From Herbidospora sakaeratensis (GTDB lineage Bacteria; Actinomycetota; Actinomycetes; Streptosporangiales; Streptosporangiaceae): a stretch of DNA of 64,000 nt. The DNA lies in contig NZ_BBXC01000019.1 in assembly GCF_001570525.1 (NCBI RefSeq), positions 124,001 through 188,000 of the forward strand, in the 5' to 3' direction. Below the pieces are notes generated by a model that worked only from the letters and a program-made list of their open reading frames with translations, was not told the DNA's origin and did no database searches. Shown here in pieces: positions 11,789 through 15,820 of the stretch. The stretch's first letter is position 1, and every line of letters begins with the position of its first letter. Made by a program: the position numbers and the translations under genes.

Positions 11789-12553
11789 ATGGTATGGGTC
11801 TTCGGGTTTGTGGCGATTGTCGTGGTGGCCCTGTTCGCGGTGCTGACGTGGCTGCGCCGCAGCGGACGTTCCGACGAGGAGGGCGGCGCCGGGCCCATCG
11901 ACTTCGCGGTCAACCTGGCCCTGGCGGTGTTCCTGGTGGTCGTGGCCTACGCCGTGGTGCTGTGCCGCGACGCCATCTCGGCGTCGGGGGCCGACGTGCG
12001 GGCCGAGTCGGAGAGCCTGGTCGAGCTCTACTGGGCGGTGGCCCCGTTGCCGCAGTCGGCTGAGGTGCGGGACTTGGTGCGGGCGTACACGACCCAGACC
12101 GTGGAACTCGACTGGCCCCGCATGCGCGAGGCGTCGCTCGACGCGCGGACCGGGGTGACGCTCGACTCGCTGCGGACGGCGATGCTGAAGTTGCCCGCGA
12201 CCGACTCCGAACTGCGCGCGGAGGCGCTGGCGCGCGCGGCGGAGGTGTCGCACGCGCGGACGGTCCGGGCTGACAACGCGACGTCGGGCCTCGAATCGGT
12301 GTTCATGGTGTCGATGGTCGTGTCGGGGTTGCTGGTGATCGCCCTGCCGTGGGCGCTGCGCCGCCGACCGACTCTGCCGTCGGTGATCGCCGACGTGGTG
12401 CGGGTCGCGACGGTGGTGACCGGGATCGTGGTGATCCACCTGATCTCGCAGCCATACGGGATCGAGGGCGCGGTGGACCCCGGGCCCCTCAAGGAGGCCC
12501 AGGTCCGTTTCGACGAGATCGACCGCCTGCTCCCTAGCGGCGGCGCCGCCTGA
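11789..12553 (+). CDS. bestrophin-like (DUF4239) integral membrane protein
   Basis: A 254-aa membrane protein. There are hydrophobic helices at about 1-20 and 40-65, a central soluble helical stretch of about 130 residues (ESLVELYWAVAPLPQSAEVRDLVRAYT), then two further helices near 170-190 and 200-220. This matches DUF4239 proteins, which are distantly related to bestrophin channels. Transport function is unproven. Its 3' end overlaps the convergent repeat-protein gene by 20 bases. Confidence 0.8.
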   Translation: MVWVFGFVAIVVVALFAVLTWLRRSGRSDEEGGAGPIDFAVNLALAVFLVVVAYAVVLCRDAISASGADVRAESESLVELYWAVAPLPQSAEVRDLVRAYTTQTVELDWPRMREASLDARTGVTLDSLRTAMLKLPATDSELRAEALARAAEVSHARTVRADNATSGLESVFMVSMVVSGLLVIALPWALRRRPTLPSVIADVVRVATVVTGIVVIHLISQPYGIEGAVDPGPLKEAQVRFDEIDRLLPSGGAA

Positions 12554-14150
12554 GCACCCCTCCGGCCGCGACGGCGATCACGGCGGTGAAGAGGACGACC
12601 ACGACCGACTGTCGGTCGGTCGGGCGATGCGTGCTCGCCGCCTGACCGATCCGCTTCCGCGCCCGCGCGATCGCACCGTCGGCCAGCGGGACGGAGTTGA
12701 TCTGCACCGGCGCGGGGGGTGCCGGCGCTTGGGCGGGGGGAACGGCTGGGCCAGGCGGAGCAGCCGGGTCCGATGCCGAACTGGCCGCCGGACCTTCGGC
12801 GGCGTCGGCGGCAGGGCCGGCCGGCGGGTCGGCACCGGGATCCGCGGCGGGATTAGCGCCGGGATCCTGAGCAGGGGCGGGCGGGGGCTTGGCGGCAGGG
12901 TTGGAAGCCGGTTTGTGGGTAGTTCCGGCCGGAGGTCCAACAGCTGGGTTGGTTGCGGGTTCGGGGACAGGCGCGGGAGCGGTCGGGTTGCCCGGTGCCG
13001 GCGCTTCGGCGGGTGGGTTGTCGCTGGACGAGTTCTGCGCAGGCGGATTCGCCGGTTCCGCAGGGCGATTCGAGGACTCCCCGGAGCTCGGCCTATTGGG
13101 GGCCTGCAGTTCCTTTGCCTGTACGGGCTGGGCAAGCGCCTTTTGATTCATGGGGTGGCTGGGTGCGCGATCGGGCGCGCTGGCTTGGCCTTGGGGCGAT
13201 GCCTTCTGCACAGGAACTTCGGTGGACGCTCCTTCCGCAGTATCCACAGCCGGTCTGTCCACAGCCGGCTTGTCCACAGCGGGGTTGTGGGCAGTTGGCT
13301 TATGCACAGGCGGCGTGGCCGCAGCGGATGAGGTCGTGTTCGAGATGTTCGCCACTGGGTTGTGTGCGGCACTTCGATCCACGTCCGGTACATCCACAGC
13401 AGTTGTACCTGTGGCCTCTGTATCCACAGGCGGCCTATCCAGCGGGGCGGTATCCACAGCTGACTTGTGCACAGCAGGCTTGTCCACACCGGGCTTTTCC
13501 ACAACAGGCTTGTGCGGGGTGGGCTTTTCCACAAGCGGCCTGTTCGCGGCGGGCCTATTCACCATGGGGTTGTTCAAGGTGGGCCTGTCCACAACTGGAC
13601 CGGTCAGAAGAGGCTTCTCCAAAGGTGGCTTGTGCACGGCTGGCCTGTCCACGCTGGGGATATCCACGCTGGGGATATCCACGCTGGGGATATCCCCAGT
13701 GGGGGCTTCCCCGGTGTGGTTTTCCACAGCACCCGTGTCCACAGCGCCATTTTCCACAGGGGTTGTCTCCACGAGGTGCGCCATGAACACGGCGATCGGG
13801 ATCTTGATAGCCAGCGGCTTCGCAGGCGGGATCCGGATGACGACAGGCAGGAGAGTCGTAGGAGCCAAGGTGGCAGGAAGGTACACGAGTGTGTTCGCCG
13901 GCACCCGGACCAAGGCGAGCGGTCTGACCAGCACCGGAATCGTCACCGGAACCGCCAGGAACGTAGTCGTCGGCTTGCGGACCACCGGGAGCCAGACCCA
14001 CCGGGAATCCCTGGTCGACGGCGGTCGGGTCGGCGGCAGGACCGCTCGGGGCAGCCGGATGGTTTCGCTTCGTTCGCAGGTCACCTCGGCCCAAGGGCCG
14101 CGCACTTCCGCGTGACAGGACGTTCTCACTTCCACCGGGATATCTGCCAT
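12534..14150 (-). CDS. pentapeptide-repeat, Pro/Ala-rich membrane-anchored protein
   Basis: A 538-aa protein in three parts. Residues 1-125 are a Pro/Val-rich segment that begins MADIPVEVRTSCHAEV. Residues of about 126-303 are a degenerate five-residue tandem repeat with consensus A-V-D-K-P (variants VENG, VHKP, VDTA). Residues of about 304-480 are a disordered Pro/Ala/Asn linker. The C-terminus is a hydrophobic helix (VVVVLFTAVIAVAAGGVL) ending RRRRR, like a tail anchor. There is no N-terminal signal peptide. Codon use in the repeat departs from neighbours (GCT, CCT, GTT, AGA, GAT, ACT), and its DNA forms a DnaA-box-like array. Two alternative plus-strand frames are open, so coding is likely but not certain. 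Confidence 0.6.
   Translation of the reverse strand: MADIPVEVRTSCHAEVRGPWAEVTCERSETIRLPRAVLPPTRPPSTRDSRWVWLPVVRKPTTTFLAVPVTIPVLVRPLALVRVPANTLVYLPATLAPTTLLPVVIRIPPAKPLAIKIPIAVFMAHLVETTPVENGAVDTGAVENHTGEAPTGDIPSVDIPSVDIPSVDRPAVHKPPLEKPLLTGPVVDRPTLNNPMVNRPAANRPLVEKPTPHKPVVEKPGVDKPAVHKSAVDTAPLDRPPVDTEATGTTAVDVPDVDRSAAHNPVANISNTTSSAAATPPVHKPTAHNPAVDKPAVDRPAVDTAEGASTEVPVQKASPQGQASAPDRAPSHPMNQKALAQPVQAKELQAPNRPSSGESSNRPAEPANPPAQNSSSDNPPAEAPAPGNPTAPAPVPEPATNPAVGPPAGTTHKPASNPAAKPPPAPAQDPGANPAADPGADPPAGPAADAAEGPAASSASDPAAPPGPAVPPAQAPAPPAPVQINSVPLADGAIARARKRIGQAASTHRPTDRQSVVVVLFTAVIAVAAGGVLRRRRR
13240..13773 (+). repeat. 15-bp tandem repeat whose units read as DnaA-box-like 9-mers
   Basis: There are 36 consecutive 15-bp registers with consensus (T/C)TGTCCACAGCNGGC on the plus strand. 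Fifteen registers contain a box ending in CACA: 13240, 13255, 13270, 13300, 13390, 13420, 13450, 13465, 13480, 13495, 13525, 13585, 13720, 13735 and 13750. Two are the Streptomyces consensus TTGTCCACA (13270, 13480), five fit TTWTNCACA, and the rest differ at one or two early positions. All point the same way. The array lies in the coding sequence of the minus-strand repeat protein. Confidence 0.85.
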
Positions 14151-15618: not shown

Positions 15619-15820
15619 GGAAGCCGACGCGTCATCTCCCGACCGGGCCGATGTGACCAGACGGCCGGTCCTAGGAAGCCGGTGCGCATTCTCCGAGCGG
15701 GCCGACGTGACCAAATGTCGCCGGTCCTAGCAGAAGTCGCTGCGCCGTCTTCTCGACGCGGCCGACGTGACCAGAAGAAGCCGGTGCGCCATCTCCCGAC
15801 CGAGCGGACGTGACAAGGTG
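15618..15820. repeat. degenerate tandem repeats, unit about 44-62 bp, in a 412-base gene-free gap
   Basis: Four diverged copies of a unit with core GAAGCCGGTGCGCCATCTCC then GACCGGGCCGACGTGACC. The GACGTGACC landmark recurs at 15647, 15701, 15763 and 15807. The remainder of the gap to 16030 holds no convincing gene; a last related fragment, AGTCGGTGCCCGTGACG, lies near 15979. I see no terminal inverted repeats or transposase, so this looks like a decayed minisatellite. Confidence 0.65.

What the first reader, a model, noticed from the sequence alone, without database searches (positions are those of the whole stretch)
13240..13773. DnaA-box-like array built from a 15-bp coding minisatellite
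Of 36 registers of 15 bp, 15 contain a plus-strand 9-mer that ends in CACA and resembles a DnaA box, a density like that of oriC, but in a coding region far from dnaA-dnaN. Two are perfect TTGTCCACA and five fit TTWTNCACA. The repeat encodes A-V-D-K-P on the minus strand. The base of the box that falls on the third codon position before GTG is T in all 15 cases, although the encoded residue varies (Ala, Pro, Val, Leu, Gly). Among 21 registers with an intact CAC, 15 have T and 6 have C, while neighbouring genes almost never use T at third positions. This suggests selection on the DNA. A DnaA-titration site like datA is possible. Simple repeat amplification is the main alternative.
Basis: partly seen in the sequence, partly recalled or inferred. 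Interest (0 to 1): 0.85.

Follow-up and report, generated by a model that had tools for sequence, protein, structure and literature searches.

The report
DnaA-box array hidden in a gene
In a genus of actinomycete bacteria, a fast-changing repeated stretch of one protein gene near the replication origin keeps the DNA word bound by the replication starter DnaA, including bases the protein does not need, which suggests the gene doubles as a DnaA-binding site.

Summary
Window 13240-13773 holds 15 plus-strand 9-mers ending in CACA (13 TCCACA, 2 TGCACA), in phase with a degenerate 15-bp coding repeat on the minus strand. One premise is wrong: dnaA is on the same contig, about 73 kb away. The array has 25 TCCACA/kb; the dnaA-dnaN intergenic has 23/kb (35.5 in its densest part), background 0.27. 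All six other Herbidospora genomes held carry the gene, 68-73 kb from dnaA where measurable. Each has its own diverged array, and each keeps TGTGGA (= TCCACA) in the same frame, above synonymous-shuffle expectation. In 73 distinct Val-Asp/Glu units the wobble base before Val is T in 55 although the residue varies; Val is GTG in 67; Arg/Ser after the acid residue favour A-first codons; the other wobble columns are variable. Codon bias, an antisense gene and mRNA structure do not explain this. Best reading: an oriC-proximal DnaA-box cluster, kept by selection on DNA and probably titrating DnaA, inside a coding minisatellite. Binding is untested, H. galbida keeps only three boxes, the species are related, and a homologue in another genus has a few Val-Asp motifs but no boxes.

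The parts
12534..14150 (-). Host gene, 538 aa: conserved N-terminus, Val-Asp/Glu repeat array, Pro/Ala-rich stretch, conserved basic C-terminus with a hydrophobic segment ending in RRRRR; no specific family
   Evidence: ORF; Pfam gives only two hits below the curated cut-off and NCBIfam none; N- and C-terminal orthologues in 6 congeners
13240..13773 (.). 15-bp repeat array carrying 15 DnaA-box-like 9-mers, all on the + strand
13240..13248 (+). GTATCCACA
13255..13263 (+). CTGTCCACA
13270..13278 (+). TTGTCCACA, identical to the high-affinity box listed for Streptomyces coelicolor and M. tuberculosis
13300..13308 (+). TTATGCACA
13390..13398 (+). ACATCCACA
13420..13428 (+). GTATCCACA
13450..13458 (+). 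GTATCCACA
13465..13473 (+). TTGTGCACA
13480..13488 (+). TTGTCCACA
13495..13503 (+). TTTTCCACA
13525..13533 (+). TTTTCCACA
13585..13593 (+). CTGTCCACA
13720..13728 (+). TTTTCCACA
13735..13743 (+). GTGTCCACA
13750..13758 (+). TTTTCCACA

Best explanation
The array is an oriC-proximal cluster of DnaA boxes written in frame into a protein-coding minisatellite. Each unit reads nnT-GTG-GAn-Ann on the coding strand, that is TNTCCACA on the other. SHOWN: the word is kept at bases that are free at the protein level, in seven species, while the encoded residues and the other wobble bases drift; the same genomes' oriC is built of the same word; the locus lies 68-73 kb from dnaA wherever this could be measured. 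INFERRED: DnaA binds the boxes, mostly as independent sites because the 15-bp spacing differs from the 11-12 bp pairs of oriC; because the locus is copied soon after initiation, the extra boxes soak up free DnaA and damp re-initiation, as proposed for clusters near oriC in S. coelicolor and B. subtilis. Repeat gain and loss would then change box number without breaking the reading frame.
For: (1) Synonymous shuffles inside each array: TGTGGA observed 13/12/6/11/3/11/9 against means 4.9/2.7/2.3/4.0/0.36/3.1/2.1; p 0.0013 or less in each of 7 species, 20,000 shuffles each. With distinct units only, the pre-Val T excess has p 0.0085 or less in each. (2) Column entropies over 73 distinct V-D/E units: wobble before Val 1.00 bit, lower than the first (1.44) and second (1.19) base of the same codon; the other wobble columns 1.77-1.86, except that of Val, 0.49. 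(3) Pre-Val Ala is GCT in 24 of 25 distinct units, against 68 of 500 Ala elsewhere in the seven genes. (4) Val GTG 67 of 73 against 117 of 209 elsewhere, p 5e-9; Arg AGR 13 of 18 against 37 of 177, p 2e-5; Arg or Ser with first base A 18 of 23 against 68 of 303, p 9e-8. (5) Seven of 7 Herbidospora have 13-17 TGTGGA/TCCACA between dnaA and dnaN. (6) In 1-kb windows on contig C19 the array (13 sites) comes next after oriC (15); it holds 9 of the 56 same-strand TCCACA pairs with a 3-33 base gap in the whole genome, reversed control 20. (7) 68-73 kb from dnaA in 5 of 5 genomes where both lie on one contig. (8) DnaA domain IV of this genome matches a solved DnaA chain (3pvp, M. tuberculosis as I recall), E 3.5e-22, with GRDHTTVM the same.
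Against: No binding data. H. galbida keeps only three TGTGGA and no YTNTCCACA; H. cretacea has two YTNTCCACA. Box position 1 shows no preference in the arrays (T in 19 of 73) but is T in 65 of 100 oriC boxes. Asp and Glu wobble choice is no different inside the boxes from the rest of these genes, so box position 3 gives no support. If the 84 distinct units that include Val-Asn and Val-His are used, the pre-Val wobble (1.16 bits) is about as variable as the second base (1.12), no longer the lowest. All 65 TGTGGA lie in one frame, as amplification alone would give. The species are close (78-88% identity at four-fold sites; 53-73% of the window's T sites retained in neighbouring genes), so p-values are not independent across species. 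The homologue in G005 has no TGTGGA or TCCACA, though it has three Val-Asp motifs, none with T before Val.
Confidence: 0.6

Rival explanations
1. Plain coding minisatellite: an ancestral unit happened to contain TGTGGANA, and slippage plus shared ancestry spread it. No selection on DNA.
For: 15-bp tandem repeats with three TGTGGA also occur in 30 of 338 genomes outside Herbidospora (35 of 345 in all); the reversed control pattern occurs in about 18 genomes, counted by eye. All boxes share one frame. T sites of neighbouring genes are also retained at 53-73% between these species.
Against: Units within and between species have diverged at first and second bases and at the other wobble bases, yet the pre-Val wobble stays T. 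Neutral inheritance predicts similar decay of all wobble columns. Genome codon usage pushes away from T (3.8-4.9%).
Confidence: 0.2
2. The conserved core is recombinogenic: TGTGGA promotes slippage or strand invasion and so perpetuates itself, without a role in replication control.
For: Copy number and composition differ strongly between species.
Against: The same word is the oriC box of the same genomes and the locus is oriC-proximal, which this does not predict. No such hotspot word is known to me for these bacteria (recalled, not searched).
Confidence: 0.08
3. The wobble bases are held by codon-pair or translation effects, mRNA structure or an overlapping antisense gene.
For: The window array folds better than dinucleotide shuffles, z -3.35, and better than synonymous shuffles, z -2.81. 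T before GTG-GA is 9% genome-wide against 3.1% before any GTG.
Against: Against synonymous shuffles the folding z-scores of the seven species run from -2.81 to +2.30. The antisense frame open in 6 of 7 species has the T at its own wobble position; the other two antisense frames have stops in 3 and 4 of 7 species. 9% is far below the 55 of 73 in the units.
Confidence: 0.05
4. DnaA binds, but the purpose is regulation or roadblocking of this gene's own transcription.
For: Boxes lie inside the transcribed region.
Against: Number and spacing of boxes vary widely between species and lie mid-gene, which suits titration better than a promoter-type switch.
Confidence: 0.07

Closest known systems
DnaA-box clusters near oriC of Streptomyces coelicolor (Smulczyk-Krawczyszyn et al. 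2006)
   Same: [quoted passage not shown]
   Different: Here the boxes form one same-strand 15-bp array in frame inside a protein repeat. I could not read the 2006 paper, so I cannot say whether any of its clusters is coding
DnaA-box clusters (DBCs) of Bacillus subtilis (Okumura et al. 2012)
   Same: Clusters outside oriC; removal of all six gives early initiation (PMC5295017, passages seen)
   Different: Different phylum; paper itself not held. [quoted passage not shown] subtilis
datA / DARS of Escherichia coli
   Same: Chromosomal DnaA-box regions that change the pool of active DnaA (abstract start of PMC4585315 in the listing)
   Different: That abstract calls them non-coding and describes conversion between DnaA-ATP and DnaA-ADP; IHF and Fis dependence is recalled. 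No IHF or Fis site was looked for here
Origin-proximal enrichment of DnaA boxes, E. coli and Salmonella (Olivi et al. 2025, PMC12371093; abstract and section 6 read)
   Same: High box density near oriC, read as titration
   Different: Regional density, not one coding array

Membership tests
oriC-proximal DnaA-box cluster | Several sequences matching the organism's own DnaA box within a few hundred bp | tested here: met
   13 TCCACA in 521 bp; the same word makes up oriC
oriC-proximal DnaA-box cluster | Close to oriC but outside the dnaA-dnaN origin | tested here: met
   about 73 kb from dnaA; 68-73 kb in 5 of 5 genomes measurable, 2 of 7 not measurable
oriC-proximal DnaA-box cluster | Kept in relatives beyond what the coding sequence requires | tested here: met
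   7 of 7 Herbidospora have more boxes than synonymous shuffles give, though galbida has only three; no box in the G005 homologue of another genus
oriC-proximal DnaA-box cluster | DnaA binds the cluster | not testable with these tools
   needs footprinting or ChIP-seq
oriC-proximal DnaA-box cluster | Deletion raises initiation, extra copies lower it | not testable with these tools
   needs mutants
datA | IHF-dependent DnaA-ATP hydrolysis at clustered boxes (recalled) | not tested
   no IHF site was searched
datA | Non-coding region (as in the abstract of PMC4585315) | tested here: not met
   lies inside a 538-aa ORF whose ends are conserved at the protein level
oriC | dnaA-dnaN context with box pairs 11-12 bp apart, as in this genome | tested here: not met
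   array spacings in the window are multiples of 15 bp; oriC spacings include 11 and 12

The most novel reading that the evidence does not exclude
The peptide repeat is a by-product of the DNA. Selection for DnaA boxes fixes TGTGGANA, and the reading frame can only turn that into x-Val-Asp/Glu followed by a residue with an A-first codon (Lys, Arg, Thr, Asn, Ile, Ser, Met). A frame-safe minisatellite thus lets a lineage raise or lower its number of DnaA-titrating boxes, tuning replication initiation by repeat copy number inside a protein gene.
Probability: 0.35. Interest if true: 0.82.

Novelty: new variant of a known kind. Interest (0 to 1): 0.64.

Why it matters
The E. coli DnaA-control loci are described as non-coding (PMC4585315 abstract). 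A DnaA-box cluster embedded in a coding repeat would show selection for initiator binding overriding protein and codon constraints. It would give a natural series of species with 3 to 13 boxes at one locus, in which the titration model (box number against initiation) could be tested directly. It also warns that odd protein repeats may be read-outs of DNA-binding sites.

Tried and rejected
Codon-pair bias: rejected, T before GTG is 124 of 4014 or 153 of 4291 with a looser ORF filter. Antisense overlapping gene: rejected on stops and wobble register. mRNA structure: rejected, the sign of the effect changes between species. Support from Asp/Glu wobble: not found, same as the rest of the gene. Similar arrays elsewhere: in 345 genomes of the order, 30 outside Herbidospora have 15-bp TGTGGA triples, which from the matched strings look mostly like near-identical recent copies, against about 18 genomes with the reversed control; in 396 genomes of the phylum 5 match, this one included. 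None of these other loci was opened. Homologues outside the genus, in 200 genomes of the family: weak N-terminal hits in G004 and G119 (not followed up) and weak C-terminal hits in G005 and G070. The G005 one lies between genes I read as the bestrophin-like and luciferase-like neighbours (by eye), 84 kb from dnaA. One search translated the wrong strand of L024 and L025, so for these two I rely on the site lists and. Plasmid search: one hit, over the repeat region only. The Pfam Extensin and HC2 hits are below cut-off. Papers with Herbidospora and DnaA: one, not relevant by its listing. Searches for DnaA boxes with 'minisatellite', with 'synonymous' and 'coding sequence', and with 'tandem repeat', 'coding region' showed no coding array in the listings; one search was noisy because 'datA' also matches 'data', and only listings of open-licence papers were seen.

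Rows dropped before counting: duplicate units within a species were collapsed (97 units to 84 distinct, 73 of them V-D/E). Units were taken only after residue 100 and before the conserved C-terminus. Gene calls for the codon null are ORFs of at least 150 aa filtered by GC3, not annotated genes; one search also left out the bestrophin-like neighbour by a boundary slip (it is back). Two 20-kb stretches chosen because they hold TCCACA pairs (C17, C26) were kept out of the background density.

Full report
WHAT IS THERE. The window is G000:C19:124001-188000 of an 8.6-Mb genome in 35 contigs. The six loci with clear orthologues of the gene are all named Herbidospora (family Streptosporangiaceae), and the genome search puts the same six contigs (by length) in the window's own genus; those six are all the congeners listed among 345 genomes of the order. 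The array lies in a 538-aa gene, 12534-14150 on the minus strand, between a bestrophin-like gene and an F420-type luciferase-like oxidoreductase, near genes I read as lysC and asd (not searched). The protein has no family beyond two hits below cut-off. Its ends are conserved in congeners (75-92% over the last 60 residues; 58-65% in the best N-terminal segments); the middle is a fast-changing repeat.

Fifteen of 36 registers carry a plus-strand 9-mer ending in CACA. TCCACA density is 25 per kb in the array, 35.5 per kb in the densest 394 bp of oriC (23 over the full 604-bp intergenic) and 0.27 per kb in 19 background stretches of 380 kb. A whole-genome search for same-strand TCCACA pairs with a gap of 3-33 bases gave 56 places (reversed control 20); 9 are in the array and 18 in the 60-109 kb part of the same contig.

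The entropy pattern is the strongest point. In the flanking, mostly Pro, codons of the unit the wobble base is the most variable (1.80-1.82 bits against 1.14-1.43). In the codon before Val, over 73 distinct V-D/E units, it is the least variable (1.00 against 1.44 and 1.19), with T in 55 of 73 spread over Ala, Pro, Val, Thr, Leu, Gly, Ser and Asn. If Val-Asn and Val-His units are added (84), it is 1.16 against 1.51 and 1.12, so level with the second base. Val is GTG in 67 of 73 against 117 of 209 elsewhere in these genes. The codon after Asp/Glu begins with A in 58 of 73 although it encodes Arg, Thr, Lys, Ile, Ser, Asn or Met; where a synonymous choice exists (Arg, Ser) A-first codons are used in 18 of 23 against 68 of 303 elsewhere. 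The constrained string is TGTGGANA, that is TNTCCACA on the plus strand. The Asp and Glu wobble base is not constrained beyond the gene's own habit.

THE WORD IS THIS ORGANISM'S DnaA BOX. The dnaA-dnaN intergenic of the window's genome holds 14 TGTGGA/TCCACA in 604 bp; the six congeners hold 13-17 (for mongoliensis a 1000-bp stretch was taken because dnaN was not recognised). Around 100 such oriC sites from the seven related genomes, C is favoured at -1 (84), G is rare at +6 (6) and A is favoured at +7 (63); the arrays show the same three (C 52, G 7 and A 58 of 73), but not the A of oriC at +8 (65 of 100 against 19 of 73). Of these, +6 follows the gene's general codon habit and -1 follows the Ala/Pro codons, so only +7 adds evidence, through the Arg/Ser test. 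PMC4285127 (passage with Table 1 seen) lists TTGTCCACA as the high-affinity box of S. coelicolor and M. tuberculosis. The DnaA domain IV of this genome is closest to solved chain 3pvp (M. tuberculosis as I recall).

ALTERNATIVES. Codon-pair bias, antisense coding and mRNA structure fail. Neutral minisatellite inheritance remains the chief rival, because shared ancestry is real and 15-bp TGTGGA repeats arise elsewhere (30 of 338 genomes outside Herbidospora, about 18 genomes for the reversed control, counted by eye). It does not predict that one wobble column stays nearly fixed while its neighbours randomise.

MECHANISM. Titration is inferred from position, number and precedent. PMC4585315 (passage) states that clusters near oriC in B. 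subtilis and S. coelicolor can repress untimely initiation. PMC5295017 (passages) reports early initiation after deletion of six B. subtilis clusters, strong only when all six go, and elsewhere says that clusters with significant roles have not been identified there. PMC12371093 (abstract and section 6) reports enrichment of boxes near oriC in E. coli and argues for titration. The 15-bp spacing differs from the 11-12-bp pairs of oriC, so I expect independent rather than filament-like binding. That the count falls to three in galbida argues against an indispensable role.

Noticed in passing
[not shown]
   Followed up: partly
L070:13968-14110 (G000:C17:73968-74110): Another six-site TCCACA/TGTGGA cluster, between genes whose sequences look like Tad pilus or secretion components (my reading of the ORFs, not searched); distance from oriC unknown because it is on another contig.
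   Followed up: no
[not shown]
   Followed up: partly
window 12534-14150: The whole gene has relaxed codon usage (T3 14% outside the array against 3.8-5.3% in other genes; across the seven orthologues GAA 73 to GAG 33 outside the units), and its N-terminus is 58-65% identical to congeners whose neighbouring genes are 87-99.8% identical.
   Followed up: partly
277 ORFs of the same genome: T before GTG-GA is 17 of 183, about three times the rate before any GTG; possibly more DnaA boxes in coding sequence.
   Followed up: no
window 15619-15777: 54-bp tandem repeat, 2.8 copies, just downstream of a DUF1232 gene.
   Followed up: no
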